Virus record (IMG/VR): IMGVR_UViG_3300048930_001424
Span: 1-64,000 of that record
Source of the DNA: a virus
Strand: one strand, 5' to 3'
DNA: 64,000 nt
Shown: in pieces, positions 29,392 through 55,358 of the stretch
How positions within the stretch are numbered: position 1 is the first letter of the stretch
Layout of the letters: each line of letters begins with the position of its first letter
Position numbers and translations under genes: made by a program
The notes under the pieces: model-generated
Told to the model about the DNA's origin: nothing
Seen by the model: only the letters and a program-made list of their open reading frames with translations
Databases searched by the model: none

Positions 29392-30286
29392 GAACCAGTC
29401 GGACATCGCGGCGCTCCAGGCGGGGCTCAAGGCGCGGAAGCCCGCGCGGGACGGTCTGCGCCTCTACACCGCCGACTTCGACTCGGTGTCGCTGGCGGGG
29501 TTCTACCGCGGGCGTTCGGCGTTCCTGATCTTGTCGGGGCCGTCACTCACGCAGGTGGATCTGTCGCAGCTCAACAAGCGAGGCATCGTCACGATGGGGG
29601 TGAACAACTCCTGGTCCGTGCATAGGCCGACGCTTTGGACGTGCGTGGACGATCCCGGCCGCTTCATCGACACAGGCTGGAAGGACCCCGGCATCCTGAA
29701 GTTCGTGCCGACGTGCTGCGTGGACAAGCGGCTCCGCATCCAGAACCCCGACGGCACCATGCGCAACAGCGCGTTCCGCGTCCGGCAGATGCCCAGCGTC
29801 CTGTTCTTCCGCCGCGCCGATCACTTCGACCATGAGCGGTTCCTGACGGGCGACTCGGTCCCGTGGGGGAACGACGCCAAGCACGCGGACTCGCTCGGGA
29901 TCACCGGTAAGCGGAGCGTGATGCTCGTGGCGCTGCGGCTCCTGCACCATCTCGGGTTCGGCACGGTGTACCTGCTCGGGTGCGACTTCAAGATGGCCGC
30001 TGACCGCAGGTACGCGTTCGATGAGCACCGGGCACCCAACGCAATCCGGCACAACAACGTCCTGTACGATTCGCTGGCCCGGCGATTCGAAGCCCTGCGG
30101 CCACACTTCGACAAGCACCGCTTCCGAGTCATCAACTGCTCGCCGGGAAGCGAGCTCCAGGCGTTCGACCGCTTGGACTTCGACGTGGCGGTGAAAGCCG
30201 CGTCCGCCGAGTGCGGCAAGCCCGTGAGCACGCAGGGCTGGTACGAACCCAATCCGAAGCCGACCCCGCAGGAGGCCGCCCGATGA
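29384..30286 (+). CDS. DUF115/glycosyltransferase-like protein
   Basis: 300-aa protein from a GTG overlapping the previous gene. The segment AFLILSGPSLTQVDLSQLNK followed by GIVTMGVNNSW resembles the nucleotide-binding start of DUF115/MptE-like and sialyltransferase-like folds. The segment GFGTVYLLGCDFKM near residue 195 fits the second half. Likely a sugar- or nucleotide-handling transferase. It ends at ATGA with the Hint protein gene, so the two are coupled. Substrate unknown. Confidence 0.6.
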   Translation: MRENQSDIAALQAGLKARKPARDGLRLYTADFDSVSLAGFYRGRSAFLILSGPSLTQVDLSQLNKRGIVTMGVNNSWSVHRPTLWTCVDDPGRFIDTGWKDPGILKFVPTCCVDKRLRIQNPDGTMRNSAFRVRQMPSVLFFRRADHFDHERFLTGDSVPWGNDAKHADSLGITGKRSVMLVALRLLHHLGFGTVYLLGCDFKMAADRRYAFDEHRAPNAIRHNNVLYDSLARRFEALRPHFDKHRFRVINCSPGSELQAFDRLDFDVAVKAASAECGKPVSTQGWYEPNPKPTPQEAAR

Positions 30287-33539: not shown

Positions 33540-33567
33540 TTGACGGCACTATCGCATGTGCTATACT
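33540..33567 (+). promoter_or_regulatory. Sigma70-like promoter of the defence operon
   Basis: TTGACG (33540-33545) and TATACT (33562-33567) with a 16-bp spacer, close to the sigma70 consensus and conspicuous in a GC-rich setting. The predicted start near 33574 leaves a leader of about 38 nt before the ATG at 33612, which has AGGA upstream. The TTG of the -35 box is also an in-frame start codon, but then the coding sequence would begin within the promoter. Confidence 0.7.
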
Positions 33568-33611
33568 CGTTCCAAGTGAAGCACGCGATAGACTCCAATC
33601 AGGAACTGCCG

Positions 33612-36600
33612 ATGCCTCCTGCCCGTCCAAGCAGCCCGGTCCCTGCGGACTACGGTGCGAAGATCAAGGAACTGCGCGGCCGCCTCGGCCTCACGCAGGT
33701 CAGGTTGTCTGAGCGTTTAGGAGTCTCGTTCGCCACCGTGAACCGGTGGGAGAACGCCCAAAGCCGTCCCTCTCCCTTGGCGTGGCAACAGATCCTGGAA
33801 CTGGGTGGCGACGAAGAAGCCGTCGCCGAGGTACCCGAGGATCGCCCACGTTCAGCGGTCATGGATTTCACTGGCCGCCCTGATGCGATCAGGGCGCTGG
33901 CGGAGGGGGAGCGGCTCTCGTTTGGCCACATGACGAATCCCGTGTTCGCCACCGAAATCGCTCAGATCGACCCGCTGCCGCACCAGCGCATCGCCGTCTA
34001 CGACCACATGCTCAAGCAGCCTCGGCTCCGATTCCTGCTCGCCGACGACGCGGGCGCGGGCAAGACGATCATGTCGGGACTCTACATCCGCGAGATGTTG
34101 TCCCGGCGACTGCTGCGGCGCATTTTGGTGGTGCCGCCAGCCGGGCTCGTGGGGAACTGGCGGCGCGAACTCTCGACGCTTTTCAGCCTGTCGTTCCGAA
34201 TCGTCGAAGGCTCCGAAGCCGCGTCGGGCAATCCCTTCATTGGCGACGACAGTGACCGCGTCATCGTGAGCGTGGACACCTTGTCCGGCCCGCGCGTGTT
34301 CGGCCGTCTCCGCGAACCAGAGGTGCAGCCCTACGACCTCGTGATCTTCGACGAGGCCCACAAGCTCGCCGCTGATCGCGGCGGCGACCTTAGGGTCCGC
34401 AGAACTGAGCGTTACCGACTGGCCGAGGCGTTGGCGGGCGTGCCAGATCTTGACGAGGCGTGGACGCTTCCCTGGAGCGCGGCCAACCTGCTGCTGCTGA
34501 CGGCGACGCCGCACATGGGTAAGGACTATCCGTACTTTGCGCTGTGGCGGCTGCTCAATCCTTCTGTCATCTCCACGCCTGAAGCGTTCAACGAGTATCC
34601 CCCGGACCAGCGGGGGCTCCACTTCATCCGGCGCACCAAAGAGGAAATGGTCACGCTGACGGGTCGTCCGCTTTACCCAACGCGAATCTCCGACACGCTC
34701 GGCTACGCCCTGTCGCAGGGTGAAGTCAGCGAGCAGGCACTCTACGACGGCACCACGGAGTACCTGCGATTCATCTACAACAAGGCGAAAATGCTGAACC
34801 GCTCGGCTGCTCGCCTGGCCATGAGCGTGTTCCAGCGCCGCTTGGCGAGTTCCACATTCGCACTCCTGCGGTCCTTCGAGCGGCGGATAGAACGCTTGAC
34901 GACGCTCATCGAGGATGTTCAGGCGGGCAAGATCACGATGGAGCAAATCATCACGCTCCAGCGCCGCATCTCTGACGATGACGACGTGTTCGACTCAAAG
35001 ACGGCTGACGACGAACGGTCCCCGGTAGACGGCGGCGAGGAGAATGAAAAGGCCGAGCAGTCGCTGCTGCAGGGGGTGATCGCCGCGTCGATCGCCGACC
35101 TCATCGCCGAGCGCGACCAGGTGCAGGAACTCCGCGATCTCGCCCAGCGGGTGTACGACAAGGGCGTCGAGTCCAAGTTCGAGAAGCTCCGGGAAGTCAT
35201 CCTCGAGGACCGCTTCGCGCATGAGAAACTGATCGTCTTTACCGAGCACCGCGACACACTCACATTTCTTGTCCGACGCCTCAATGGCATGGGGTACACC
35301 GGCCAGGTCGCTCAAATCCACGGCGGGATGCACTACAGCGAGCGCGAGGAACAGGTTGAAAAGTTCCGCAAGCCCATCGCCGAAGGCGGGGCACGGTTCA
35401 TGATCTGTACCGACGCGGCCGCTGAGGGCATCAACCTTCAGTTCTGTTGGGTGATGATCAACTACGACGTGCCCTGGAATCCCGCGCGGCTCGAACAGCG
35501 CATGGGCCGCATCCACCGCTACGGTCAGCAGCACGATCCCGTGATCATCATGAACCTCATCGCCCCCGAGACGCGCGAGGGCAAGGTGATGGAGACGCTC
35601 CTAGAGAAACTGGAGCGCATCCGTAAGCAGCTCAAGTCCGACAAGGTCTTCGACGTGATCGGACGGCTGTTCCAGGGTGTTTCGATCAAGCAGTACATGG
35701 AGGCCGCCGTCGAAGAGGATGACGCCGCAGCTGTCGCCGCCAAACTCGGTGGTATCCTGACCGCCGAGCAGGTCGAAGCGTTGGCCGAGCGAGAGAAGTC
35801 GCTCTTTGGGGATGGCGGCGATGTGAAGCGGGAACTGCCCCGTATCCGTGCTGAGATCGACAACGAGGCATATCGCCGACTGCTGCCCGGCTATGTCCGC
35901 CAATACATCGAGAACGCCGCCCCGCTCGTGGACATCGAGATCGACGGAGATGCACGCTCGTTTTTTTCGTTCAAGCCCGCTCGTCGCGGCGCGATCGACC
36001 GCATCTTGCCCACGTTGGACTTCTACCCCACGCGCCTTCACGAACTCCTGACGGTCTCCCGCCCGCCCAGCAAAGCGGACGGTATCTGGGTGCATCCCGG
36101 CGAGCCCGTCTTTGAGCAGTTCCGGGCCATCGTGTCCGACCGGCTGAGCGCCGAGGCCGCGAAGGGCGGGGTGTTCGTCGATCCCGACGCGGAGCGCCCG
36201 TACCTATTCCACCTCGCGCTTGTGTCGGTCGTCCGCGACGCCGATCCGCAGATGCCCGAGCTCGGTGCAGCATCCACGTTTGAATCCCGTCTCGTCGGCG
36301 TCAAGCAGTTCGAAGGGACTGAACTTCAGGTCTGTCCCGTCGAGCACTTGCTGTTGCTCAAGGGAGGCACAGGGCTTCCAGCAGCGGCGCAACGGCTGGC
36401 GGTCGCGGCACCGGGACTCCGAGATCAGGCGGCCGCGTTCATCGTCGAACGCGTCGCCCGGCAGTTGGCCATCGACCGCAAGAACCGACTGCTCTCCACG
36501 ATCGAGGAACGCGAAGCCTTCCTGCGGCGGGGCTTCAGCTACCAGGAGGCCGAACTCGCCGCCGCCCGCGGCAAGCAGGCCGAAAAGGCGCGATCAGGCA

Positions 36601-37181
36601 ACCGCACCGCCGCGAAAGAACTGGAGGAGATCAAGCGGGCGCAGCGTGATCTCACGGCCCGCCGTGACCGAGCCATCGCGGTCATCCGCCGCGAGCCGGA
36701 ACTGATCGGTCTTGCCCCGATTCATTTCGTCGCTCACGCTCTCGTGGTGCCATCCTCAGACCCGCTCGATCGCGAGCGACACGACGCTGATGTTGAGCAT
36801 GTCGCCATGCAGATCGCTTGGGCATGGGAGGAATCAGAGGGAGCCGTCGTCAAGGACGTGCATACGCCAGAACTCGCGCGGGCGGCGGGCTTGCCGGATT
36901 ACCCGGGCTTCGATCTGTTGTCGGTGCGGCCGAGCGGTGAGAAACGGGGCATCGAGGTCAAGGGCCGTGCCGCGACCGGCGACGTGGAGTTGTTCTCCAA
37001 CGAGTGGGCCAAGGCGTGCAACATGGGGCCGTCTTACTGGCTTTATGTGGTCTACGACTGCGCCACTCCAACGCCGCGACGTGCGCGCGTCCGCGACCCA
37101 TTCAATCGTCTGCTCGCCAAGGCAAAGGGCAGCATCCTCATCAGCGCTAAGCAGATTCTCTCTGTGGAAGGCGATGCCTGA
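33612..37181 (+). CDS. HTH-SNF2 helicase-DUF3883 defence protein
   Basis: 1189-aa protein. An XRE-type HTH (residues about 16-64: IKELRGRLGLTQVRLSERLG and TVNRWENAQSRPS) precedes an SNF2/SF2 helicase with Walker A DDAGAGKT near 145-152, DEAH near 246-250 (VIFDEAHK) and helicase C-terminal segments (FTEHRDTLTFLVRRL, later MGRIHRYGQ). A coiled region and a DUF3883 domain close the C terminus (near 1095-1175, FDLLSVRPSGEKRGIEVKG). DUF3883 resembles restriction-endonuclease-fold modules, and the EVKG fits a PD-(D/E)xK-like motif. It would translocate on and possibly cut non-self DNA. It is the first gene of the operon. Confidence 0.88.
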   Translation: MPPARPSSPVPADYGAKIKELRGRLGLTQVRLSERLGVSFATVNRWENAQSRPSPLAWQQILELGGDEEAVAEVPEDRPRSAVMDFTGRPDAIRALAEGERLSFGHMTNPVFATEIAQIDPLPHQRIAVYDHMLKQPRLRFLLADDAGAGKTIMSGLYIREMLSRRLLRRILVVPPAGLVGNWRRELSTLFSLSFRIVEGSEAASGNPFIGDDSDRVIVSVDTLSGPRVFGRLREPEVQPYDLVIFDEAHKLAADRGGDLRVRRTERYRLAEALAGVPDLDEAWTLPWSAANLLLLTATPHMGKDYPYFALWRLLNPSVISTPEAFNEYPPDQRGLHFIRRTKEEMVTLTGRPLYPTRISDTLGYALSQGEVSEQALYDGTTEYLRFIYNKAKMLNRSAARLAMSVFQRRLASSTFALLRSFERRIERLTTLIEDVQAGKITMEQIITLQRRISDDDDVFDSKTADDERSPVDGGEENEKAEQSLLQGVIAASIADLIAERDQVQELRDLAQRVYDKGVESKFEKLREVILEDRFAHEKLIVFTEHRDTLTFLVRRLNGMGYTGQVAQIHGGMHYSEREEQVEKFRKPIAEGGARFMICTDAAAEGINLQFCWVMINYDVPWNPARLEQRMGRIHRYGQQHDPVIIMNLIAPETREGKVMETLLEKLERIRKQLKSDKVFDVIGRLFQGVSIKQYMEAAVEEDDAAAVAAKLGGILTAEQVEALAEREKSLFGDGGDVKRELPRIRAEIDNEAYRRLLPGYVRQYIENAAPLVDIEIDGDARSFFSFKPARRGAIDRILPTLDFYPTRLHELLTVSRPPSKADGIWVHPGEPVFEQFRAIVSDRLSAEAAKGGVFVDPDAERPYLFHLALVSVVRDADPQMPELGAASTFESRLVGVKQFEGTELQVCPVEHLLLLKGGTGLPAAAQRLAVAAPGLRDQAAAFIVERVARQLAIDRKNRLLSTIEEREAFLRRGFSYQEAELAAARGKQAEKARSGNRTAAKELEEIKRAQRDLTARRDRAIAVIRREPELIGLAPIHFVAHALVVPSSDPLDRERHDADVEHVAMQIAWAWEESEGAVVKDVHTPELARAAGLPDYPGFDLLSVRPSGEKRGIEVKGRAATGDVELFSNEWAKACNMGPSYWLYVVYDCATPTPRRARVRDPFNRLLAKAKGSILISAKQILSVEGDA

Positions 37182-37217
37182 GATTGTCCTGGTCGGATTC
37201 TCGTGGGAAGCTCCCTT

Positions 37218-38288
37218 ATGGCAGACACACACTCCAAGTCCATTTGTGCAACTCTGGCAGACTACCGGCATGGCGAGATCGCTGCTCGAACGCCAGCCGA
37301 TGTCGATCGATGGATTAATCAGTTTGACAAGGGCGATCGAGACGTGGTCCTTCAGGAGACGGACCGGTTATTGCAAAAGCACTACGTCAGCGGAAAGGCC
37401 GCCAGGGCGTTCATCGACAGCATCTGGGCGACACAGAAGCTGATGGGAGCGTCGGCCGCATCAACAGTTGGCGGGTTCAAGTTCTTGGAGGTTGCCCGTA
37501 AGGGGGCAAGCCAAGGCGCCATGATCGAGTTGGCGAGATCTAGCCTCAAGCAGGCTCTCCGACTTGATCTCGATGCGTGCGGCAAGAGCCCTACGGCATA
37601 CGTCTATTTAGATGACTGCCTTTTTTCCGGCAACACCGTTGTGCACGATCTCAAGGATCACGTTGACGACCTGGCCAAGAACTCGACTGTCCACATGGTG
37701 TTCCTCGGCGGACACAACGGCGGGGTCAGGTACATCACGAAAGCTCTCGCACCCATCCTCGCCAAGCGTGGGATCAAGCACAACGTATGGACGATCCCCA
37801 CTCACACCTTTCAGAATCTACCCTGGGAGCCGGAGTCCTTCCAGCCGATGTGGCCCACCGAGGTGAAGGGTGACAAGCTGGTCGATGCCTACCTGGCTCG
37901 CGTGCAGAAAGCGTGTGAGGGCAAGTCCTTCACGCCCAGGCTGTTCCGGCCTCAGGCACGGACCAAAGAGGACGTGTTCTCTTCCCCTGCGGCGCGTCAA
38001 GCTGTTGAGACCGCGTTTCTGCGCAAGGGAGCATTCATTGTCGCGCAGTGCCAGAACCCGAAGGACAGCATGCGTCCGCTCGGCTACGAGTATCTGAGCT
38101 CACTCGGGTTTGGGGCGTTGATTGTGACCTACCGCAACATCGCGAACAACTGCCCCTTGGCGCTGTGGTGGGGCGATCCGAATGCCGCCAAGTCACATCC
38201 GCTCTCGAAGTGGTTCCCGTTGATCCCCCGTAGAAGCAATCAGGAGACTGCGAGCTCATCCTTCAGTGCTGACGATTACGACTTCTGA
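37218..38288 (+). CDS. PRTase-CE-like phosphoribosyltransferase-fold protein
   Basis: 356-aa protein matching the phosphoribosyltransferase conserved-effector pattern. It has an N-terminal helical part with RWINQF at residues 31-36, a PRPP-loop-like YVYLDDCLFSGNT at 128-140 (two acidic residues followed by SGNT), and a C-terminal HPLSKWFPLIPRR typical of the family. Known PRTases move phosphoribose between PRPP and bases. In conflict systems this variant is predicted to act on nucleotides or nucleic acids, with unproven chemistry. It lies between the helicase and the NADAR-methyltransferase. The Met at 37218 is chosen; a GTG five codons earlier is possible. Confidence 0.75.
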   Translation: MADTHSKSICATLADYRHGEIAARTPADVDRWINQFDKGDRDVVLQETDRLLQKHYVSGKAARAFIDSIWATQKLMGASAASTVGGFKFLEVARKGASQGAMIELARSSLKQALRLDLDACGKSPTAYVYLDDCLFSGNTVVHDLKDHVDDLAKNSTVHMVFLGGHNGGVRYITKALAPILAKRGIKHNVWTIPTHTFQNLPWEPESFQPMWPTEVKGDKLVDAYLARVQKACEGKSFTPRLFRPQARTKEDVFSSPAARQAVETAFLRKGAFIVAQCQNPKDSMRPLGYEYLSSLGFGALIVTYRNIANNCPLALWWGDPNAAKSHPLSKWFPLIPRRSNQETASSSFSADDYDF

Positions 38289-38301: not shown

Positions 38302-41300
38302 ATGGCCAGAACACCAGAAACCCGCACCTACGACCGCGCGACCTCTGTGGTCTTCCTGAAGACCAAAGAGCGATTCGGTGGGCTGTCGAACATGGCGGGA
38401 GGGTTTCCATTGCAAGTTTGTGGCCGTCGCATCTTGACATCTGAGGCGTTGTACCAAGCGTGCCGGTTCCCGCACATGCCGGACATTCAGGAACTCATCG
38501 TCGATCAGTCGAGCCCGATGACTGCGAAGATGAAGAGCAAGCCCTACCGGAGTCAGTCCCGGGCGGATTGGGATGCTGTCCGCGTCACCATCATGCGCTG
38601 GTGTTTGCGCGTGAAGCTGGCTCAGAACTTCAAGTCGTTTAGCCGACTCCTGCGAGAGACGGGTGATCGGCCGATTGTCGAGGAGTCCCGCAAGGACGAC
38701 TTCTGGGGCGCGAAGCCCTCCACGCCAGACCGGCTTGAAGGCAAGAACGTCCTCGGTCGCTTGCTTATGGAGCTTCGCCAACTCGTTCTGGCGACGGCGG
38801 ACGACACGCTTCAGTCCGTCGACCCACCGGCCTTGCGTGAGTTTCTGATTTTTGGTCAACCGATCGGGCGGATTGGCGCGGGCGCGGCGGCACCCGCGCC
38901 CATGTCTGTCGCGGCGCTGTTCGCCGACGCTCCCGAGACATTGGAAGAAGCAAAGCCCATCACGGCCTCATCCGCTGGTCTCATCTCGCCCCCTGTGCCT
39001 GCTGTCGTTCCCGTGAGCATCACAATGACCGACCACCCACGCCTCATCGAACACGCCTTCCCATTGAAACAGGCGTCATTGGACTCCGTTCATGAGAAGA
39101 ACGTGCGCCATGGCCACATTTCTACGATCCATCTCTGGCCAGCACGGCGACCCCTCGCTGCTTGCCGGGCGGCACTGATCGCCACTCTACTGCCGGACCC
39201 CGGCACGCCCGAAGGCCGTCTGGCGCTGTGTGAGAAGATTGGCGGACGAGTGGTCAAGCGGATCGAGAAGAAGAAAATGCCGAACGGCTCCACGGTCGAG
39301 CGAGAAAAGCTCGACACTGAAGGGGGCATCCTCCACTGGGGGCGAGAAGTTGAGAACGTGGAGGCGATGGAGTGGTTCCGCCAGGAGATTCGCAAGGCCC
39401 ACGGCGGCCGCGCTCCAAAGGTGCTTGACCCTTTTTCGGGTGGTGGCGCAATCCCGCTCGAAGCCATGCGACTGGGATGCGAAGCGACGGCCGTGGACAT
39501 CAACCCGGTCGCATGGTTCACGCTCAAGTGCACTCTTGAATACCCGCAAAACCTCGCTGGTCAGACGTGTAGGCTCCCCGCATTCATTCTGCGCAATGAG
39601 GCCTTCATGTTCGAGTTCTTCACGAAGGCAAAGGGGATGAGCAAGGGCCAGGCCGCCAAGGCGATGGAACGGCTGGGACGGAAGCTCAAAGACGGAGAGC
39701 AGACTAACTTGGATTTCGGAGCCGCCGCGGGCGAACTCGACGCAGACATGGCATGGCACGTGCGGGCGTGGGGGCGATGGGTCCTAGAACGCGCCCGGCA
39801 CGACCTATTCAAGTACTACCCGACTTACGCTGACTTCGAACCGCTTAAAGACAGCGGTAAGGTCTACGAGCGCCAGCCGATGCGCCTCGTTCCTGCGAAT
39901 GAGAGCGGCGTTGCCGATTGTGATTCGCTCAACAGGGAGTTCTCAAAGGACTACCTGGCAGTCGCGGGCAATCCGCGGTGGTTGTCCAAACCGACAGTGG
40001 CGTATCTCTGGGCCCGCACAGTCACCTGCAAGAACTGTCGGGCAACGGTCCCATTGCTAAAGACACGCTGGCTTTGCAAGAGCGACAGAAAGCGGGTCGT
40101 TCTGACGATGACGCCACGTGCAGACGGGACTGGCGTTGTGTTCGGTATCGACAGCCAGGTTGAGAGCAAGGGTGGCAACGCAGCGCAGAAGAGGGAGCAC
40201 GACAAAAAGGTCGGCGCGGGCACCATGAGCCGCGCCGGTGCCAAATGCCCCTGCTGTCCGAGCATCATGACGATGGAGGACATTCGCTTGGAGGGACAGG
40301 CCGGGCGACTCGGAAGTGTGATGACCGCAGTCGTCGCGGATGAACCTCAGGGCAAGACTGGAAAGTCGTATCGCTTGCCGACTCGAGAGGAGCTCGAAGC
40401 GGCATCACTTGAGGAAGAGGCGATCAAGTCTGCATTCGCGGCCGTGCCGTTTGGCGTGCCTGAAGAGCCGACGCCCAGCGCTGATGCACTGGGCATGCGC
40501 ATCCCGCTCTACGGATTCAACAAATGGAGAACGCTTTTCACTCCTCGGCAGTTGCTTGCCCTTGGTGTTTTCGTCACCGACACGCGCGACGCTCGCAACG
40601 AAATGACCACTCACGGATACTCAGAAGAGTGGGTCGAAGCGGTTGGGGCTTACCTAGCGTGTGGCATCGATCGCCTATTGGATTTCGCCAACTGCGGCAC
40701 GCAATGGAAGCTCGACGCGAGCACCATCAACCACTCGTTCGTCCGCTTCGCTTTACCGATTACCTGGGACTACGCAGAGGGGAATCTCCTCGGCGAAAGC
40801 GCGGGAAGTTATCTGATTTGCCAAGATCGGATCGCCACGGCCTTGGACACGTTTTGCGAGTGGAAGTTCAGGTCTCCGGCACCGAAGATCATCCGCCAGT
40901 CATCTGTGCAGCCCACGCGAGGCGAATTTGATCTCATCCTGACAGATCCACCGTACTACGACGCAATCCCCTATTCGGATCTCATGGATTTTTTCTATGT
41001 GTGGCTTCGTCGAATGGTCGCCGGAGTAAGCAAGGACATCGATCTGGCATTTCAGGGCGACCTGTCGCCAAAATGGAGCGATGACGAGAACGATGGCGAG
41101 CTCGTTGACGACTCCAGCCGCCACAAGGGCGATGCGGCGAAGAGCAAACAAGTCTACGAGGACGGCATGGCCCGCGTCTTCACTCAATGCGCGGCCGTCC
41201 TCAAACCACAAGGCCGCCTGGTAATCGTTTTCGCCAACAAACAGCCCGACGCCTGGGAAACGCTCGTCTCAGCGATCATTCGTGCGGGGTTCACAGTGGA

Positions 41301-42348
41301 CGGAACCTGGCCCATCCAGACGGAGCAGGCGAGCCGAATGCGAGCGATTTCCTCTGCCGCCCTCGCGTCTTCCGTTTGGCTTGTGTGCAAGAAGCGTTCT
41401 GCGACCGCCACTGCGGGATGGGACAACCGCGTCGTCGAAGAGATGCGGACAAACATCGGCAGGCGACTTCAAGAGTACTGGGATGCGGGGATCAAGGGGC
41501 CGGACTTCATCTGGGCAGCGACTGGCCCGGCTCTTGAAGCATTCAGCAAACATCCGGTCGTCAAGAAGGCCAACGGCCCCGGCACCATGAGTGTCACCGA
41601 GTTCCTCACGCACGTCCGTCGCCTCGTGGTGGACTACGTCGTCGGCCAGGTGCTTTCGGGCACGGATGGTGCCAGCGGAGTAGTTGGGAGTGGTGCGGCC
41701 GCCGACAGGTTGGATGAAGCCACGGCCTACTACTTACTTCACCGCAACGATTTTGGTCTCGGTGAAGCTGCCGTGGGCACCGTCATCCTCTACGCCGTCT
41801 CGTGCGGACTCTCCGACCGCGACTTGGTTGATACTTGGGAATTGGCCGTCATGGTCGGTGATGACACTGTCACAGCCGATGATGCAGAAGACGAAGCTCA
41901 AGACGGTGGTGACGGACCTTCCGAGGATGAGTCAGGTAGCAAGGGGAGCACCATCCGCCTAAAGCGATGGAGTGAACGCACAGGTCGGAGCAGCGCCTCC
42001 ATCGGCTACGAAGCCCCCGGCGGACGACCCGTGCCGCTCATCGATCGTGTCCACCGCGTGATGCAGTTGTACAAGGCTGGCGACATCGGTAAGGTTGACG
42101 AGTATCTTGACGAGCACGGTCTGCGCCGTCACGAACTGTTTAAGCGTGTAATCCAGTCACTGATCGAGGTGTCGCGCCGGGAGCGAGGGACGGCCGCGGG
42201 CGGTCGTGATGATCACGGCGACGAGACGACGCTACTCGAAGCTCTCAGCAACCACATCGGGGCCAAGGGTGCGAAGCGGCAGACAGGCCAGCGCGAACTA
42301 AGCGAGACCACCGACAATTGGACGCCGACCTCGGCGTCGGCGGAGTAA
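38302..42348 (+). CDS. NADAR domain fused to DUF1156 DNA methyltransferase
   Basis: 1348-aa protein with two parts. Residues 1-165 are a NADAR (YbiA/DUF1768) domain: FGGLSNMAGGFPL, the key Glu48 in LTSEALYQA, RKDDFWGA near 130-137 and NVLGRLLMELR near 149-159. NADAR enzymes remove ADP-ribose from guanine. A Pro/Ala linker spans 190-240. Residues 245-1100 are a DUF1156-type adenine methyltransferase: DPFSGGG near 376-382, zinc-ribbon CKNCRA and CPCCP segments, and DPPYYD near 882-887. The C terminus is acidic and then helical. I know of no standard system with this fusion. An ATG at 38266 would overlap the upstream gene; 38302 starts at the domain. Confidence 0.88.
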   Translation: MARTPETRTYDRATSVVFLKTKERFGGLSNMAGGFPLQVCGRRILTSEALYQACRFPHMPDIQELIVDQSSPMTAKMKSKPYRSQSRADWDAVRVTIMRWCLRVKLAQNFKSFSRLLRETGDRPIVEESRKDDFWGAKPSTPDRLEGKNVLGRLLMELRQLVLATADDTLQSVDPPALREFLIFGQPIGRIGAGAAAPAPMSVAALFADAPETLEEAKPITASSAGLISPPVPAVVPVSITMTDHPRLIEHAFPLKQASLDSVHEKNVRHGHISTIHLWPARRPLAACRAALIATLLPDPGTPEGRLALCEKIGGRVVKRIEKKKMPNGSTVEREKLDTEGGILHWGREVENVEAMEWFRQEIRKAHGGRAPKVLDPFSGGGAIPLEAMRLGCEATAVDINPVAWFTLKCTLEYPQNLAGQTCRLPAFILRNEAFMFEFFTKAKGMSKGQAAKAMERLGRKLKDGEQTNLDFGAAAGELDADMAWHVRAWGRWVLERARHDLFKYYPTYADFEPLKDSGKVYERQPMRLVPANESGVADCDSLNREFSKDYLAVAGNPRWLSKPTVAYLWARTVTCKNCRATVPLLKTRWLCKSDRKRVVLTMTPRADGTGVVFGIDSQVESKGGNAAQKREHDKKVGAGTMSRAGAKCPCCPSIMTMEDIRLEGQAGRLGSVMTAVVADEPQGKTGKSYRLPTREELEAASLEEEAIKSAFAAVPFGVPEEPTPSADALGMRIPLYGFNKWRTLFTPRQLLALGVFVTDTRDARNEMTTHGYSEEWVEAVGAYLACGIDRLLDFANCGTQWKLDASTINHSFVRFALPITWDYAEGNLLGESAGSYLICQDRIATALDTFCEWKFRSPAPKIIRQSSVQPTRGEFDLILTDPPYYDAIPYSDLMDFFYVWLRRMVAGVSKDIDLAFQGDLSPKWSDDENDGELVDDSSRHKGDAAKSKQVYEDGMARVFTQCAAVLKPQGRLVIVFANKQPDAWETLVSAIIRAGFTVDGTWPIQTEQASRMRAISSAALASSVWLVCKKRSATATAGWDNRVVEEMRTNIGRRLQEYWDAGIKGPDFIWAATGPALEAFSKHPVVKKANGPGTMSVTEFLTHVRRLVVDYVVGQVLSGTDGASGVVGSGAAADRLDEATAYYLLHRNDFGLGEAAVGTVILYAVSCGLSDRDLVDTWELAVMVGDDTVTADDAEDEAQDGGDGPSEDESGSKGSTIRLKRWSERTGRSSASIGYEAPGGRPVPLIDRVHRVMQLYKAGDIGKVDEYLDEHGLRRHELFKRVIQSLIEVSRRERGTAAGGRDDHGDETTLLEALSNHIGAKGAKRQTGQRELSETTDNWTPTSASAE

Positions 42349-42354
42349 TCGAAC

Positions 42355-45300
42355 ATGGCAAAACTACCCTGGAAACCCTGGCACGAAGTGGTCAAGCTGC
42401 GGGACGATCTCAAGTCAGGCGAGCTGCCTCTGCACATGTTCGCTGCGGACCTCTACGAGGTCCTGATGCAGAACGGCAAACGGCCGATCTACGAAAAACC
42501 GGAGAACTTCTTCGCGCTGACTTTCCCGACGCACAACCTGCGCGCCCTGGTTCGTGACGTGGTGCTTCGCGTCGCAGGCAAAAATGACAAGGCTGTGCGC
42601 CAGTTGGAGCTCACATACGGCGGTGGCAAGACGCACACGCTCATCACACTCCGCCATCTCGTGCATGATCCGTCGGCACTGCCGGACGTGCCCGCCGTCG
42701 GCGAGTTCGAGCAAGCGATTGGGATGAAGCCACCGAAGGCCCGCGTCGCTGGCCTGTGCTTTGACAAGCTCGACGTTGAGACGGGAATGGATGTTCGGTC
42801 GCCGGACGGCAAGGTCCGGCGGCTGAAGCAGCCCTGGAGCGTGCTCGCGTACCAGATCGCGGGCGATGACGGGCTCAAGCTCCTGCACGCCGACAAGAAG
42901 GCCGAGGAACGCGAGTCAGCCCCCGCCGAGAACGTCCTCACCGAGTTGCTGGAGATCCCGGTCAAGCAGGGCTTCGGCGTGCTCATCCTCATCGATGAGG
43001 TGCTGATGTATGTGCGCGAGAAGGTCGCCCTCGCGCCCGACTACCGGGCGCGTATGGTGAACTTCTTCCAGTACCTGACGCAGGCGGCTACAAAGGTGGA
43101 CCGCTGCTGCATCGTGGCCTCGCTTCTGGCCAGCGACCCCAAGAAGAATGACGCCTTCGGCAACGAACTCAAGGCCGAGCTCTACGACATCTTCCAACGC
43201 CAACGAGAAGAGGCCGTCGAGCCGGTCGTAAAGGAGGACGTGGCCGAGGTGCTTCGGCGGCGGTTCTTCACGACCGAGTCCATCAAGACCCCCGGCGACT
43301 TCAAGCAGCATGTGATCGCCGCAATCAAGGGCATCGCCGACCTAGACGAGCAGACCGCCAAGCAGGGACTCGCGACGGAGGACCGCTACCTCAAGAGCTT
43401 CCCCTTCCACCCCGAACTGACGGAAGTCTTCTACAGCAAGTGGACCCAACTGGATGGCTTCCAGCGCACCCGTGGCGTGCTGCGGACGTTCGCGCTCGCG
43501 CTCCGCGAAGCGGAGAAGTGGGATACCAGCCCCCTCGTTGGTCCTGCGGCGTTCCTGACCGCGCCGGGCAAGAGCGGTCTTTCAGAGGCGGTGGGCGAAC
43601 TCGTCACGGTGGCCGACACCGGCGGAGGCGACGGCGGCCGCCGCCAGGCGTGGACTGGCATCCTCGTGGGCGAGTTGGCGCAGGCCCAGAACATCCAGTT
43701 GGAGTCGGTCGGCCTGAGGTTCCGTGAGATCGAGGAGGCCGTGATCGCCACGTTCCTTCACTCTCAGCCCATCGGTCAGACAGCCAAGACGCGGGAACTC
43801 ATGCTCCTGCTGGGGCCGACCCGCCCGTTCCGAATCGATTTGGAGAAGGGCCTCACCCGCTGGGCACAAACGAGTCATTGGCTCGACGACCGCCTCGCAC
43901 CCGGAGGGAACGACCTGCCCGCCCAGTGGCGGCTGGGCAACCGCCCGAACCTCAACCAGATGCACTCCAAGGCTGCGGGCGAGATCTCCGATGATGTAGC
44001 TCGCGCCCGCCTGATCGATGAGATCGGCAAGACTAAGGCCCTGACCTCCGGCGCCTCAGCCGCTGGTGTGCGCGTTCACACGCTCCCTGCCAAGCCAAAG
44101 GAAATCGACGATGACGGCGTGTTCCGGTACGCAGTGCTGGGACCGAGCGCGGCCTCGGAATCGGGCAAGCCGAGCGCCGAGGCCAAACGGTTCCTTGACG
44201 AGACCACAGGCGCGGAAAAGCCCCGCGTGTTTCGCAACTCCGTGCTGCTGCTGACCCCGTCAAAGGACGGGCTCGAAGTGGCGATGGCCCGCGTGCGCGA
44301 GCTCATGGCGTGGGACGTGGTCCAGAAGGACCTCAAGGAGCAGGAGAAAGAGGGGAACGTCGATGCGTCGCGGTTGGCGACGTTGGCCATGAACATCGAC
44401 AAAGCCAAGGGCCGCATTCCCGAAGCGGTGAAGCAGGCGTACTGCATCGTCGTGACCGTGAACGACAAGGACGATGTCCACGCCTTCAAGATCACGGTCA
44501 CCGACGATCCAATCTTTCAGACAATCAAAGAGGATCAGCGGTCACGCATTCAGGACACGGCGATCACCGCAGAGGCCCTCCTCCCCGATGGTCCGTATAG
44601 CCTCTGGAAAGAGGGCGAAACCAGTCGTCGCGTGAAGGACCTCGCCGGGGCGTTTGCGCAGATGCCGCACCTTCCGAAGATGCTCAAGTCGCAGGCGATC
44701 GTGGACACGTTGGTGGAAGGCTGCGCACAGGGTGCGTTCGTTTTGCGCCTGATGCGCCCCGACCGGACGTTCCGTACCTGGTGGAGGAGTCGCCCCGACG
44801 AGGCGGCGCTTAACGATCCCGCGCTCGAACTCGTGTTGCCGAAGGCAGCTGAACTCACAGACGTGGATTCTGATCTGCTGCGGCAAGGCGCGCTGCCGAG
44901 CCTCTGGGCTGGCACTCAGATCACGGTTGCGGATGTGAAGTCGTATTTCAACGGCTCCAAGGTCGTTCAGGTTCAACGGGATGGGTACGAGGAACCCGTG
45001 CTGATTCCCAAGGCATCGAGCGAGGCGATCGAGCGGGGGGTGACGGAGGCAGTTGAGGCAGGGGCCATCTGGCTCACGTCTGGCCCGGCGAGCCTTTTGG
45101 GCGAACCGATCCCAGCAGGAATCCTCACCGACGCTGCGACGCTGCTCCCACCACCCGCGGCGATCACCGCTCCCGAAATCCTGCCCGAAAATCTGCCGTC
45201 GGCGTGGCAGGGCGGCGAAGCAACCGCCCTGGCGCTGGCCACCGCGCTGTCGCAGAACGTGGGGAGGACGCTGCCGTGGAAAACCGTTCGAGACGTGATC

Positions 45301-45669
45301 GGCGGCGCGATCGCAGCGAGGTTTGTGTCCGTTGGTTCCGGGACATGGCCATGTGACTTGGCCGGTGCGGGAGTCGTGCGGCTCAAGGTTGTCGCCGCTT
45401 CTGGCGGCGGAGGCGGAGGCGGGGGTGGCCCCGGCGAAGGCCGCAAGCAGAACGTTGCCATCGCCGCTGCGGACTTCGAGCCGTCTGAGATTCAGGACCT
45501 GAGCGACCACATGGCGCGGCTGCTTGAGATTCGTGCAAAGGCCAACGTGCCGATTCGCTTCCATGTCCGCGTGGAGCTTGGCGATGGGGCCAAGCCCCTG
45601 GACAAGAAACTCCTCGCGGAGTTCAACCAGGAACTGGCATCCCTCAAGGACGGGTTCTCTGTTCAATAA
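42355..45669 (+). CDS. DUF499 AAA+ ATPase
   Basis: 1104-aa ATPase. Walker A is GGGKT at residues 89-93, within YGGGKTHTL, and Walker B is VLILIDEVLMY near 207-217, the DUF499 arrangement. A middle region with a helicase or adaptor look (LLGPTRPFRIDLEKG near 485) and a C-terminal Ala/Pro-rich and Gly-stretch segment (GGGGGGGGGP near 1020) follow. DUF499 proteins are genetic partners of DUF1156 methyltransferases in defence islands and are thought to couple ATP hydrolysis to DNA transactions. Only 6 bp separate it from the methyltransferase gene, so they belong to one operon. Confidence 0.88.
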   Translation: MAKLPWKPWHEVVKLRDDLKSGELPLHMFAADLYEVLMQNGKRPIYEKPENFFALTFPTHNLRALVRDVVLRVAGKNDKAVRQLELTYGGGKTHTLITLRHLVHDPSALPDVPAVGEFEQAIGMKPPKARVAGLCFDKLDVETGMDVRSPDGKVRRLKQPWSVLAYQIAGDDGLKLLHADKKAEERESAPAENVLTELLEIPVKQGFGVLILIDEVLMYVREKVALAPDYRARMVNFFQYLTQAATKVDRCCIVASLLASDPKKNDAFGNELKAELYDIFQRQREEAVEPVVKEDVAEVLRRRFFTTESIKTPGDFKQHVIAAIKGIADLDEQTAKQGLATEDRYLKSFPFHPELTEVFYSKWTQLDGFQRTRGVLRTFALALREAEKWDTSPLVGPAAFLTAPGKSGLSEAVGELVTVADTGGGDGGRRQAWTGILVGELAQAQNIQLESVGLRFREIEEAVIATFLHSQPIGQTAKTRELMLLLGPTRPFRIDLEKGLTRWAQTSHWLDDRLAPGGNDLPAQWRLGNRPNLNQMHSKAAGEISDDVARARLIDEIGKTKALTSGASAAGVRVHTLPAKPKEIDDDGVFRYAVLGPSAASESGKPSAEAKRFLDETTGAEKPRVFRNSVLLLTPSKDGLEVAMARVRELMAWDVVQKDLKEQEKEGNVDASRLATLAMNIDKAKGRIPEAVKQAYCIVVTVNDKDDVHAFKITVTDDPIFQTIKEDQRSRIQDTAITAEALLPDGPYSLWKEGETSRRVKDLAGAFAQMPHLPKMLKSQAIVDTLVEGCAQGAFVLRLMRPDRTFRTWWRSRPDEAALNDPALELVLPKAAELTDVDSDLLRQGALPSLWAGTQITVADVKSYFNGSKVVQVQRDGYEEPVLIPKASSEAIERGVTEAVEAGAIWLTSGPASLLGEPIPAGILTDAATLLPPPAAITAPEILPENLPSAWQGGEATALALATALSQNVGRTLPWKTVRDVIGGAIAARFVSVGSGTWPCDLAGAGVVRLKVVAASGGGGGGGGGPGEGRKQNVAIAAADFEPSEIQDLSDHMARLLEIRAKANVPIRFHVRVELGDGAKPLDKKLLAEFNQELASLKDGFSVQ

Positions 45670-45701: not shown

Positions 45702-46496
45702 ATGCCAGCTAATGCACGAGATACATTCCGGATCGACATCGCCCGCGCTCAGGCTTTGGTAGATCATGCGGCGTCGCTCCCGAGTGGCTCAGACCCGGAA
45801 CATCTGTTGCGGGACGATGTGCTGCGTTCCGGCTGGATGTTCGCGGTTGGGGCGATGGATGCCTATTTCTGCGATGCCTATGCAGACGTGATTGCCGCGA
45901 CACTGATTTGCAAAGCGAGAGAACCGGGGGTCGTATTACCTGCCTTCGTGCTGAAGATCCAAGTGCCAGTGGCGACGATCCTCGAGGCCTACACGGCTCG
46001 CCCGAACTGGAAGTGGCGCATGGCTGCCCGGGCCATGCTCGAGGAGGAAAACGCCTTGCAGATCGAGACGATTCGGAAGTGGTTCAACCCCTTCTTTGAC
46101 AAGCCCGCAAAAGTGTTCTTTGAAGTCGTTCCAGCATGGCTCGCAGTTGCCCCAGCACCTGACAGGCTCTTTGGCACGACCAATGCTGTCTTTTCCGCAT
46201 TGGTCGGGAAGGCTCGTTCAGATGCCCACACGGAGGCCCGAGACGCGTTTCATGGTCGGTTGACTGAGATGGTCCAGCGGCGGCACGACTGCATCCATGC
46301 CTGCGACCGTCCCGGCAACTCGCCGCAGCCAATTGCGGGGCCGGGCACCGTTGGAAACGTCATTCGCGACATTACCTTTGTGGTCGAGCAGTTCAACACC
46401 CATCTCGATACCGAGTTCCGGCGCTGGCTCGCCTGCGGCGGTGTGCCGGGGTCCACGGGCTTTTCAAACGCCGCGATTCAGCAGGTGGGGTATTGA
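45702..46496 (+). CDS. HEPN (RiboL-PSP-like) nuclease candidate
   Basis: 264-aa, largely helical protein. RHDCIHACDRP near residue 194 fits the HEPN R-X4-H motif (Arg194, His199), the hallmark of many RNA-cleaving HEPN domains, and the surrounding pattern resembles the RiboL-PSP-HEPN family. It follows the DUF499 gene by 32 bp and precedes a strong hairpin terminator, so it is probably the last gene of the same operon. The expected role is an RNase effector triggered when the upstream machinery detects invasion. Family assignment rests on the motif and helicity only. Confidence 0.7.
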   Translation: MPANARDTFRIDIARAQALVDHAASLPSGSDPEHLLRDDVLRSGWMFAVGAMDAYFCDAYADVIAATLICKAREPGVVLPAFVLKIQVPVATILEAYTARPNWKWRMAARAMLEEENALQIETIRKWFNPFFDKPAKVFFEVVPAWLAVAPAPDRLFGTTNAVFSALVGKARSDAHTEARDAFHGRLTEMVQRRHDCIHACDRPGNSPQPIAGPGTVGNVIRDITFVVEQFNTHLDTEFRRWLACGGVPGSTGFSNAAIQQVGY

Positions 46497-46914: not shown

Positions 46915-48810
46915 TCAGCGCACGGCCTGCTCGCCGGCGAGGATGCGATCGAGCCAGGCAACGTCCCAGATGCGGTCGGCGATCCGGCGGTAGAGCGCCT
47001 GCCGTTCGTCGAGGTCCGCCTTCTTGAACTGACCATGCGCCCGGAACGGAAGTTCCTGATCCCGGACAAAGCGGACGAATCCGGGGTTGTGCTCGTAGGC
47101 GCGAGGGTGCAGCGACTTGGCCAGCGCGTTTTGTCCGAAGTAGTGCTCCAGCTTGTCGGCATAGGGCCGATCCCCGTAGGAGGCGTTGAACGACTTGGGG
47201 AGCAGCAGGAGGCCGCCAAACCGGTTGCGGTAGTCTTCGAAGTCGGTCTTGTGCTGAAACTCGTCGCGGAAATCCTCCGGGTGGTTCGGCCAGATGTGCT
47301 CGACCTCGAATCCCTTCTTCCCCCGAAGCGTGATGTACTCCGCGTAGCGAGACTGGCCGCCGCCGCTCACATCGATGTAGTCCGCCATGCGAGCCAGTAG
47401 ACGCTTGATCGGCTTGTGGCTCCACTGGTTCAGATAAAACCCATCGAACCCCGTGAGCCTCTCGGTTTGCTCTTCGAGCCGCTTGCGCAACGCCGCGGCG
47501 ATCTCCTTCGGGCTGCCGCCCCGGATGTCGCGCACGACGGTGAAGACGTTGTACTGCAGCGAGTTGTAGTCGCAGTTGCGGAAGTTGCACAGTCGGCGCG
47601 ACAGATAGATGTCTGCGTACTTGGCGACGAGCCGCATCTTCAGCCGGATCACGTCGTCGGAATCGCTCCGTGACAGGGCAGCCAGCAACAGCGTCGGCTG
47701 GTGGGTGAACTGGTGCGTGGCGTTGTGGTAGACGTTCTCCAGCCCAGGCGTTGGCTGCATTTCCGCTCGGCGGATGACCATGTACCACTTCGCGTAGAAG
47801 GCCATCTCCGCCGTAATGAAATCCCGGTACGCGGGCGAATGCGGCTGGCTGTTCTTCGCCAGGCCAACACGATCTGCCTGCTCTCGCACCCAGCGGTGGA
47901 ACTCCGTGCCGATCCGGTCCCACGCCTCGGGCCGAGCATCCTTCTTGCGGATGCGGATGTTGTCGGCGTACTGGCTGCGGAGCCACGCCTTGAAGAAGTC
48001 GGAGTCGTACTCCTGGTTGTCGGGCGCCAGCGCCCTCATCTCGGCCAGCATCCTCTTCCACTCGGCGCTCGCAGCGTCGCGGGAACGGGTATCCGCGATG
48101 TTCGCCAGCAGGTACCCCTTGAGCATGTCCGTCGGCGACAGTGATAGGCCGCGGTCATTCATGGTCTCGAAGATCGTGTAGGCGACATCATCGGAGTAGG
48201 CGGTGATCTCGACCAGGTGAACGTTCTTGGTGAGCCAATCCACGAAATAAGGGAGGGCGGCATCATCGATCTCGTCGGGCCAGAGCTCCTCAATCTCGTT
48301 GTACCGGGCCACGATGTTTCTCGACGACTCGGGCAGGTCCTCGTCGTCGATGTCGGTCCCGTCGAATAGCGCCTGCATGATGGCCCGCCGCTCCGGCACA
48401 TCGACGTTGAACGACTTCTCGCCGTACTCCTCTGAGTAGATCATCTCCCCGACGCTGTTCTGTTGTTTCGCGGCCTGCTGCCGCTTCATCAAGAACAGCA
48501 GGACCAGCGTGAGCGTCGTCAATCGCTGCTGGCCGTCGATGATGTAGTCGCGGCCGTCCTTCTGGCTCACGATGATCGAGCCCAGGAAGTACCGGTCATA
48601 GCCGGCGACGGCGCGACGCTCGTGCCCGGGCTCGTAGCTCCGGAAAAACACGTCGGTCAGGTCGCTGATCAACTCCTCCAGCTGCTTGGTCTGCCACTTG
48701 TACTCGCGCTGGTAGTAGTCGATGTAGAACTTCCGGCCGAACAGGATCTCGCGGAGCGTCTTGCCCTTGCCGTCGATGTTCTTCCGCTGGATGGATTGGT
48801 CGTTGCTCAT
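46915..48810 (-). CDS. GmrSD-like type IV restriction protein (DUF262-DUF1524)
   Basis: 631-aa single-chain protein. The N-terminal DUF262 (GmrS-like) part carries the family motif DGQQR at residues 92-96 (IIDGQQRLTT), preceded by DYYQREYKW at 31-39. The C-terminal DUF1524 (GmrD-like) nuclease has an HNH-type VEHIWPN at 503-509. GmrSD enzymes cut DNA carrying modified cytosines such as glucosylated hydroxymethylcytosine, using nucleotides. It reads opposite to the neighbouring modules and its start is divergent from hsdR, with 145 bp between. Confidence 0.92.
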   Translation of the reverse strand: MSNDQSIQRKNIDGKGKTLREILFGRKFYIDYYQREYKWQTKQLEELISDLTDVFFRSYEPGHERRAVAGYDRYFLGSIIVSQKDGRDYIIDGQQRLTTLTLVLLFLMKRQQAAKQQNSVGEMIYSEEYGEKSFNVDVPERRAIMQALFDGTDIDDEDLPESSRNIVARYNEIEELWPDEIDDAALPYFVDWLTKNVHLVEITAYSDDVAYTIFETMNDRGLSLSPTDMLKGYLLANIADTRSRDAASAEWKRMLAEMRALAPDNQEYDSDFFKAWLRSQYADNIRIRKKDARPEAWDRIGTEFHRWVREQADRVGLAKNSQPHSPAYRDFITAEMAFYAKWYMVIRRAEMQPTPGLENVYHNATHQFTHQPTLLLAALSRSDSDDVIRLKMRLVAKYADIYLSRRLCNFRNCDYNSLQYNVFTVVRDIRGGSPKEIAAALRKRLEEQTERLTGFDGFYLNQWSHKPIKRLLARMADYIDVSGGGQSRYAEYITLRGKKGFEVEHIWPNHPEDFRDEFQHKTDFEDYRNRFGGLLLLPKSFNASYGDRPYADKLEHYFGQNALAKSLHPRAYEHNPGFVRFVRDQELPFRAHGQFKKADLDERQALYRRIADRIWDVAWLDRILAGEQAVR

Positions 48811-48955
48811 CAGGTATCCCAGACAGATGGCGGACAGGGGCCAGGGAGCCGCAGGCGTCCATCGAAGTCGGATGGTACAGGACCCCGCCCTCCTGGGCAG
48901 GAAGGGCCATCAGCCCGTACCATGTCGATTCCCGCATAGCCAGCAACCCTTCCCA

Positions 48956-51337: not shown

Positions 51338-51411
51338 TCGCCCTACAACCCGCCCCTGTCCCTCGTCTCCACCCCCGCTCCCCTGACCTCACAGATGAAC
51401 TGAACCCCGCG

Positions 51412-55355: not shown

Positions 55356-55358
55356 ATC

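What the first reader, a model, noticed from the sequence alone, without database searches (positions are those of the whole stretch)
38302..42348. NADAR domain fused to a DNA methyltransferase
Residues 1-165 keep the NADAR landmarks (TSEALYQA, DDFWG, LGRLLMELR), and DUF1156 begins at about 245. NADAR proteins are known as reversers of guanine ADP-ribosylation opposite DarT-like toxins. Their covalent attachment to a modification methyltransferase suggests that DNA bearing both adenine methylation and ADP-ribosyl guanine is part of the biology, or that the protein protects against phage DarT-like attack.
Basis: partly seen in the sequence, partly recalled or inferred. Interest (0 to 1): 0.88.

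Follow-up and report, generated by a model that had tools for sequence, protein, structure and literature searches.

The report
Anti-phage pair wired into a methyltransferase operon
The reported enzyme fusion is real, but it is half of a known two-gene anti-phage pair (a phosphoribosyltransferase plus a sugar-removing NADAR enzyme) that has been inserted many times into DNA-methylating defence operons, with the NADAR half fused to the subunit that reads or methylates DNA, which suggests a 'guard the guard' arrangement that can be tested directly.

Summary
Confirmed: window 38302-42348 encodes one 1348-aa protein, NADAR (residues 8-188) fused to a DUF1156 DNA methyltransferase. The methyltransferase is HmaB of a helicase-methylase-ATPase (HMA) operon (HmaA 33540-37181, HmaC 42355-45669).

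PRTase and NADAR both pass NCBI's curated cut-offs for DS32_1 and DS32_2, a two-gene anti-phage system. In 79 of 80 bacterial PRTase loci, found without using NADAR, a NADAR gene follows directly, usually overlapping; the 80th contig ends first. NADAR stands alone (32), is fused to the type I specificity subunit HsdS (36), to HmaB (7), or has another extension (3); one is cut off. HmaB-fused loci fall in 8 separate places on the PRTase tree.

These NADARs form a distinct subfamily: Arg replaces the usual active-site Lys in 107 of 107 complete copies. No DarT-like toxin gene was found in the operon, so the DarT/ADP-ribose reading is not favoured.

Best mechanism (inferred): the PRTase is the toxic effector, NADAR erases its product, and tying NADAR to the DNA-recognition subunit makes the module a guardian of the host system, as PrrC guards EcoprrI. 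The architecture is firm; the chemistry is untested.

The parts
33540..37181 (+). HmaA: HTH + SNF2/DEAD helicase (DEAH at residue 271) + NO VEIN C-terminal domain
   Evidence: PADLOC HmaA 499.7 bits; Pfam Helicase_C, NOV_C; motif
37203..38288 (+). PRTase-CE phosphoribosyltransferase, DS32_1 (proposed effector/toxin)
   Evidence: Pfam PF24390 166.9 bits; NCBIfam NF053875 DS32_1 322.2 bits, cut-off 250; AF2 pLDDT 89.7, nearest solved folds uracil PRTases, E 0.016, prob 0.96
37605..37631 (+). PRPP-binding motif YLDDCLFSG (PRTase residues 135-143)
   Evidence: D137 and G143 invariant in 108 PRTases, D138 in 107, S/T142 in 107; profile aligns it with PyrR DDVLYTG
38302..42348 (+). NADAR-HmaB fusion, 1348 aa
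   Evidence: single open frame; recurs in 7 other loci
38323..38865 (+). NADAR domain (residues 8-188), DS32_2 subfamily
   Evidence: NCBIfam NF053876 271.9 bits, cut-off 240; AF2 + Foldseek to YbiA and 8bau
38443..38445 (+). E48, equivalent of the conserved NADAR Glu (P. nicotianae E43, E. coli C7 E88)
   Evidence: alignment to 2b3w/8bau; E in 107/107 PRTase-linked NADARs with the column filled
38464..38466 (+). R55, in place of the NADAR active-site Lys (K50/K95): signature of the PRTase-linked subfamily
   Evidence: R in 107/107 PRTase-linked, K in 18/20 other NADARs; one exception is itself PRTase-linked
38680..38682 (+). E127, YbiA-type catalytic Glu (P. nicotianae E125)
   Evidence: E in 108/108 PRTase-linked NADARs
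38866..39054 (+). linker between NADAR and DUF1156 (residues 189-251)
   Evidence: domain limits
39055..41643 (+). HmaB: DUF1156 (252-302) + amino-methyltransferase (FSGGG 378-382; DPPY 882-885)
   Evidence: PADLOC HmaB 374.9 bits to residue 1114; Pfam DUF1156; motifs
42355..45669 (+). HmaC: DUF499 AAA+ ATPase (GGGKTH at residue 89), no N-terminal HEPN extension
   Evidence: PADLOC HmaC 241.6 bits; Pfam DUF499; Walker A position
45702..46496 (+). 264-aa protein right after HmaC, not conserved in the other loci; weak HEPN_RiboL-PSP match below cut-off
   Evidence: Pfam E 0.02; no convincing similarity to neighbours in L050, L077, L087
31733..32788 (-). RmrA-like HTH + IrrE-type peptidase, divergent neighbour (possible regulator)
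   Evidence: PADLOC RmrA 225.3 bits; Pfam HTH + Peptidase_M78

Best explanation
The locus is an HMA (DUF499-centred, BREX-related) restriction-like operon in which the two-gene anti-phage module DS-32 (PRTase + NADAR) has been inserted between HmaA and HmaB, with the NADAR half fused to the N-terminus of the methyltransferase HmaB. Proposed working: the PRTase is the toxic effector. With PRPP it makes a phosphoribosyl N-glycoside, most likely on a purine base of nucleic acid or of a nucleotide. NADAR, an N-glycosidase, hydrolyses that product and so keeps the effector harmless. Because the eraser is part of the DNA-recognising/methylating subunit, erasure depends on an intact, correctly placed HMA complex. 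When a phage blocks, displaces or degrades that complex, erasure fails and the PRTase stops the infected cell. Shown by sequence: the operon, the fusion, intact active-site motifs, the near-obligate PRTase-NADAR pairing, and repeated fusion to HsdS or HmaB. Inferred: which half is toxic, the chemistry, and the trigger.
For: Both halves pass NCBI's curated DS-32 anti-phage cut-offs. 79/80 bacterial PRTase loci, selected on PRTase alone, have NADAR directly downstream, 62 of 79 with overlapping frames. In 296 Rhodobacterales genomes the 4 strong PRTase matches are exactly the ones next to the 4 NADARs in long frames, while weaker PRTase-CE relatives and 25 other NADARs are unpaired; in 320 Burkholderiales the same 3 genomes carry both, adjacent. 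(One genome in each sample is the seed.) Of 46 NADARs with a C-terminal fusion, 43 are fused to HsdS or HmaB. HmaB-fused rows fall in 8 places on the PRTase tree (at least 7 changes forced by well-supported branches); HsdS-fused rows need 8 changes (at least 5); fused HmaBs also fall in several groups of the HmaB tree. PRPP-motif residues and the NADAR catalytic Glu pair are essentially invariant. Precedents: PrrC is embedded in a type I R-M operon, sequestered in the enzyme and released when T4 Stp inhibits it (PMC3874165); NADAR is the antitoxin of DarT1 (PMC11543638); YbiA cleaves the N-glycosidic bond of riboflavin intermediates (PMC11543638), which are 5-phosphoribosyl amines (own knowledge).
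Against: No experiment here shows toxicity, enzyme activity or a trigger. The PRTase fold match is weak (E 0.016), so the acceptor cannot be read from it. NADAR might be a required second effector rather than an antidote: the published text available says nothing on which part of DS-32 does what. About 40% of the loci are stand-alone pairs, so the module does not need a host system. Changes counted on trees mix gains, losses and transfer.
Confidence: 0.52

Rival explanations
1. Metabolite pair: PRTase and NADAR are both effectors. PRTase couples PRPP to a free base or analogue and NADAR hydrolyses the product, so together they drain PRPP or make a toxic or signalling nucleotide; NADAR is not an antidote.
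For: PRTases normally act on free bases; both active sites fit a 5-phosphoribosyl N-glycoside; near-strict co-occurrence fits obligate co-action as well as toxin-antitoxin.
Against: Does not explain why NADAR, and not PRTase, is the part fused to HsdS/HmaB (43 of 46 fusions), nor why jumbo phages keep this NADAR type without PRTase.
Confidence: 0.25
2. One reading: the NADAR removes ADP-ribosyl-guanine from DNA at or near methylation sites, against a DarT-like toxin of host or phage.
For: NADAR fold and catalytic Glu residues intact; YbiA-type NADARs can act on guanine-ADPr DNA (PMC11125620).
Against: No ART gene recognised in the operon; constant partner is a PRTase; invariant R55, and K95R fails to rescue from DarT1 (PMC11543638); adenine-side ligand residues not kept.
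Confidence: 0.1
3. The fusion is a neutral stop-codon loss between overlapping, translationally coupled genes; the module just rides in the operon for expression.
For: Frames overlap in 62 of 79 loci for PRTase and NADAR, so tight packing that makes read-through fusion easy is common; L025 has HmaB adjacent but unfused.
Against: Fusion recurs on many branches and almost always joins NADAR to the DNA-recognition/modification subunit.
Confidence: 0.1

Closest known systems
DS-32 two-gene anti-phage system (NCBIfam NF053875/NF053876; DS numbering as in DefensePredictor, PMC13092281)
   Same: Both proteins above curated cut-offs; same gene order; PRTase directly before NADAR.
   Different: E. coli and plasmid pairs are stand-alone; here the pair sits inside an HMA operon and NADAR is fused to HmaB. 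No such fusion is mentioned in the main text read.
Hma (PMC8565338) / DUF499-centred BREX-related systems (PMC12839542)
   Same: Helicase, DUF1156 methyltransferase and DUF499 ATPase in one operon.
   Different: Extra PRTase gene and N-terminal NADAR on HmaB; NADAR, PRTase and phosphoribosyl do not occur in the main text of PMC12839542.
DarT1-NADAR (DarTG1)
   Same: Base-modifying enzyme partner next to a NADAR hydrolase.
   Different: Partner is a PRTase, not an ART; NADAR has Arg at the Lys95 position and Glu, not Asp, at the D171 position.
PrrC in EcoprrI (type I R-M guardian)
   Same: Suspected toxic effector embedded in a restriction-modification operon.
   Different: PrrC is an anticodon nuclease and is not fused; here the predicted eraser is fused to the DNA-recognition/modification subunit.
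PRTase effectors of type III-A retrons and the DprA-PRTase system (PMC9122126)
   Same: Same broad PRTase-CE group; weak retron PRTase_III-A hits in the C-terminal part (24-26 bits).
   Different: Those partners are reverse transcriptase/WH or DprA, not NADAR.

Membership tests
DS-32 anti-phage pair | PRTase scoring over NF053875 cut-off | tested here: met
   322.2 bits, cut-off 250
DS-32 anti-phage pair | NADAR scoring over NF053876 cut-off, directly downstream | tested here: met
   271.9 bits, cut-off 240; 13 nt gap
DS-32 anti-phage pair | protects against phage | not testable with these tools
   needs plaque assays
HMA / DUF499-centred BREX-related system | HmaA helicase, HmaB DUF1156 methyltransferase and HmaC DUF499 ATPase in one operon | tested here: met
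   PADLOC 499.7, 374.9 and 241.6 bits
HMA / DUF499-centred BREX-related system | catalytic motifs intact (DEAH, DPPY and FxGxG, Walker A) | tested here: met
NADAR superfamily, YbiA-type | NADAR fold | tested here: met
   AF2 + Foldseek to 2b3w and 8bau
NADAR superfamily, YbiA-type | catalytic Glu pair (E43 and E125 equivalents) | tested here: met
   E48, E127
NADAR superfamily, YbiA-type | active-site Lys (K50/K95 equivalent; common but not universal in the superfamily) | tested here: not met
   Arg55; Arg in 107/107 PRTase-linked members
DarT1-NADAR toxin-antitoxin | ART (DarT) gene next to NADAR | tested here: not met
   no ART family match in the operon proteins
DarT1-NADAR toxin-antitoxin | Asp at the D171 position | tested here: not met
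   Glu127
type I phosphoribosyltransferase | PRPP-binding motif (DD..[ST]G) | tested here: met
   YLDDCLFSG, near-invariant in 108 sequences
type I phosphoribosyltransferase | overall fold matches solved PRTases | tested here: inconclusive
   best hits are uracil PRTases, prob 0.96 but E 0.016, TM 0.39
PrrC-like guardian of R-M | gene lies inside an R-M-like operon with intact partners | tested here: met
   window HMA; HsdM-PRTase-NADAR::HsdS-HsdR order in most HsdS-fused loci
PrrC-like guardian of R-M | effector silenced by the R-M complex and released by an anti-restriction protein | not testable with these tools
   needs experiment

The most novel reading that the evidence does not exclude
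PRTase and NADAR are a writer-eraser pair for a previously undescribed nucleic-acid lesion, base phosphoribosylation from PRPP (the PRPP counterpart of DarT/NADAR ADP-ribosylation). Restriction-like systems have repeatedly fused the eraser to their DNA-recognition or methylation subunit, so that any attack on the restriction system releases the lesion.
Probability: 0.28. Interest if true: 0.9.

Novelty: new variant of a known kind. Interest (0 to 1): 0.72.

Why it matters
DS-32 is catalogued as anti-phage, but I found no mechanism for it in the papers searched. The repeated fusion of its NADAR half, and not its PRTase half, to HsdS or HmaB is a natural experiment: it points to which half must be localised to the DNA-recognition complex and makes a toxin/eraser model directly testable. 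If right, it gives a PRTase effector family a defined counter-enzyme, extends the 'guarded restriction system' idea beyond PrrC, and predicts that NADARs of the same subtype in jumbo phages are counter-defence enzymes.

Tried and rejected
(1) DarT-type reading: no ART found among the operon proteins. (2) That PRTase-NADAR replaces the HEPN suicide domain known on DUF499 ATPases: the window and five loci lack an N-terminal extension, but HmaC of L077 and L087 has about 160 extra N-terminal residues with RNKWAH/RNDWAH (HEPN-like), so they are not mutually exclusive. (3) That the 264-aa gene after HmaC is a conserved part: not similar to the downstream genes of other loci. (4) That NADAR-HmaB is the common HmaB form: among about 40 Planctomycetota genomes (of 246) with HmaB, only the seed genome G003 is fused, and no plasmid DUF1156 match covers the NADAR part in the rows listed. 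(5) A PRTase-NADAR single-chain fusion that could be folded to see an interface: none found. (6) Literature search for the term 'PRTase-CE' gave nothing.
Full report
Observation. The frame 38302-42348 (+) is one uninterrupted protein of 1348 aa. Pfam finds NADAR at residues 18-160 (83.9 bits) and DUF1156 at 252-302 (61.5 bits); PADLOC calls the rest HmaB (374.9 bits). AlphaFold2 of the N-terminal 213 residues is confident (mean pLDDT 93.1) and its only significant PDB matches are E. coli YbiA and the P. nicotianae NADAR with ADP-ribose.

Surroundings. The fusion is the third gene of an operon: HmaA helicase (33540-37181), a PRTase-CE phosphoribosyltransferase (37203-38288), NADAR-HmaB (38302-42348), HmaC DUF499 ATPase (42355-45669). 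The window is part of a 90256-base IMG/VR record. Bases 1-31 kb hold phage genes: large serine recombinase, helicase-primase, gpA-type terminase, portal, capsid, tape measure. From about 32 kb G+C falls from 65-67% to 61-63% and defence genes follow: HMA with PRTase-NADAR, GmrSD, a type I R-M set, a PtuA-like ATPase with an HNH protein, a second large serine integrase, and QatC.

What the extra gene is. NCBIfam has curated models for exactly this pair: NF053875 DS32_1 (PRTase; window 322.2 bits, cut-off 250) and NF053876 DS32_2 (NADAR; window 271.9 bits, cut-off 240). The DS numbering is that of DefensePredictor (PMC13092281), whose figure 4 legend lists a PRTase among validated systems; its main text does not describe DS-32 further, and linking the two rests on the shared name. 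An E. coli prophage pair also passes both models; a search with such a pair finds it in 63 of 5426 E. coli genomes, and in one of them it sits in a lambdoid prophage between replication gene P and ninE.

How tight the pairing is. A genome scan with a PRTase-only alignment gave 80 bacterial loci; 79 have NADAR directly downstream and the remaining contig ends 96 bases after the PRTase. In 62 of 79 the two frames overlap. In 296 Rhodobacterales genomes, the four PRTase-CE matches above 190 bits are each next to a NADAR, and those four NADARs are the only ones in frames over 700 aa; 12 genomes with weaker PRTase-CE relatives and 25 other NADARs show no pairing. In 320 Burkholderiales, the same three genomes carry both DS-32 proteins over cut-off, adjacent. 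One genome in each sample was the seed. The 80 loci are the best of 187 by similarity to the query, so they describe this PRTase subfamily, not all PRTases.

Fusion partners. Among the 79 loci NADAR is alone (32), fused to HsdS (36), fused to HmaB (7), otherwise extended (3), or cut off by the contig end (1). HsdS-fused loci mostly have HsdM upstream and HsdR downstream, for example L002: HsdM, PRTase, NADAR::HsdS, HsdR. HmaB-fused loci have HmaA and HmaC in place and come from Planctomycetota, Gaiellales, Thermodesulfobacteriota, Chloroflexota and an unclassified MAG. On a tree of 108 PRTases the eight HmaB-fused rows occupy eight places (at least seven changes forced by well-supported branches) and the 39 HsdS-fused rows need eight changes (at least five). 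The window's nearest PRTase relatives (42-43% identity) are pairs in Anabaena, Dolichospermum and Pseudanabaena. In a smaller HmaB tree fused and plain proteins interleave in several groups. These counts mix gain, loss and transfer, and several branches are long. Among about 40 Planctomycetota genomes with HmaB only the seed is fused, so the fusion is a minority form.

Active sites. The PRPP motif Y-x-D-D-x-x-F-[ST]-G is essentially invariant (D137 108/108, D138 107/108, G143 108/108), as is a C-terminal RN[CI][PA]NNxPL motif; the profile aligns the first with PyrR's PRPP loop. The fold match to uracil PRTases is only moderate (E 0.016). In NADAR, E48 and E127 (catalytic Glu pair) are invariant, but the active-site Lys is Arg in all 107 PRTase-linked copies with that column filled, against Lys in 18 of 20 other NADARs; one of the two exceptions (L203) proved to be PRTase-linked itself. 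From the alignment to 8bau and the contacts in PMC11543638, the adenine-stacking Tyr84 and the adenine-ribose contact Asp86 correspond to Q85 and R87 here, while phosphate and distal-ribose contacts are kept. YbiA also lacks those two, so this alone does not prove a new substrate.

Mechanism. Shown: a complete HMA operon, a complete DS-32 pair, intact active-site motifs, obligate-looking pairing and repeated fusion of the NADAR half to the DNA-recognition/methylation subunit. Established knowledge: NADARs hydrolyse N-glycosidic bonds, of ADP-ribosyl guanine (PMC11543638, PMC11125620) and of riboflavin intermediates; PRTases use PRPP to make phosphoribosyl N-glycosides; PRTases are suspected effectors in retrons and DprA-PRTase (PMC9122126); PrrC is held silent inside a type I R-M complex and released when a phage inhibits that complex (PMC3874165); some DUF499 ATPases carry a HEPN domain as a proposed suicide effector (PMC12839542). 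Inference: PRTase writes a damaging phosphoribosyl mark, NADAR removes it, and attachment to HmaB or HsdS makes removal depend on a healthy restriction complex. The main rival is a metabolite mechanism in which both enzymes act together on free nucleotides.

Phage side. NADARs of the same R55 type occur without PRTase in large phage contigs and a 45%-identical NADAR occurs in the isolate Dolichospermum phage Dfl-JY45, while the window PRTase finds nothing in 50,697 phage records. Dolichospermum and Anabaena genomes carry PRTase-NADAR (L008, L009). This fits a phage-borne eraser, but is not proof.

Verdict. The interpretation should move from 'NADAR-methyltransferase against DarT' to 'DS-32 PRTase-NADAR module built into an HMA operon with the eraser fused to the methyltransferase'. 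The components are known; the recurrent fusion architecture was not found in the papers searched, though supplementary files and subscription papers could not be read.

Noticed in passing
L003, L004, L129, L147, L149, L150; Dolichospermum phage Dfl-JY45 (L240:2498-3136): Large phages carry NADARs close to the PRTase-linked subfamily (Arg at position 55 in 11 of 13 contig rows) without any PRTase; possible counter-defence erasers.
   Followed up: partly
L206:6959-8592: E. coli lambdoid prophage carries a stand-alone PRTase-NADAR pair between replication gene P and ninE; a search with a near-identical pair hits 63 of 5426 complete E. coli genomes.
   Followed up: partly
L207:2959-5792: In E. coli ETEC1732 an IS5-type element splits the PRTase while NADAR stays intact, as expected if the PRTase is the burdensome half; a single event, so only anecdotal.
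   Followed up: no
L077:14633-18001 and L087:14786-18082: HmaC proteins with an extra N-terminal region containing RNKWAH/RNDWAH (HEPN-like), together with a PRTase-NADAR module in the same operon: two candidate suicide effectors in one system.
   Followed up: partly
window 48761-57646: Type I R-M set (HsdR, HsdM, S-like protein) followed directly by a PtuA-like ATPase (PDC-M01A 460 bits) and an HNH protein (PDC-M01B), a Septu-like pair apparently linked to R-M.
   Followed up: partly
window 61327-63474: 715-aa QatC/QueC-like protein just beyond the second serine integrase, suggesting a Qat-type system extending past the window.
   Followed up: no
window 2933-4498 and 58514-60106: Two large serine recombinases, one at the phage end and one inside the defence island; the island has lower G+C than the phage genes and may be a separate mobile unit.
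   Followed up: partly
window 30211-31719: 502-aa protein with a weak Hint/intein-like (PT-HINT) match at the end of the phage structural region.
   Followed up: no
L008, L009, L010 (NADAR ORFs of 323-326 aa); L098 (350 aa): NADARs with a 133-162 aa C-terminal extension that matches no Pfam or NCBIfam family (tested for L008 and L098).
   Followed up: partly
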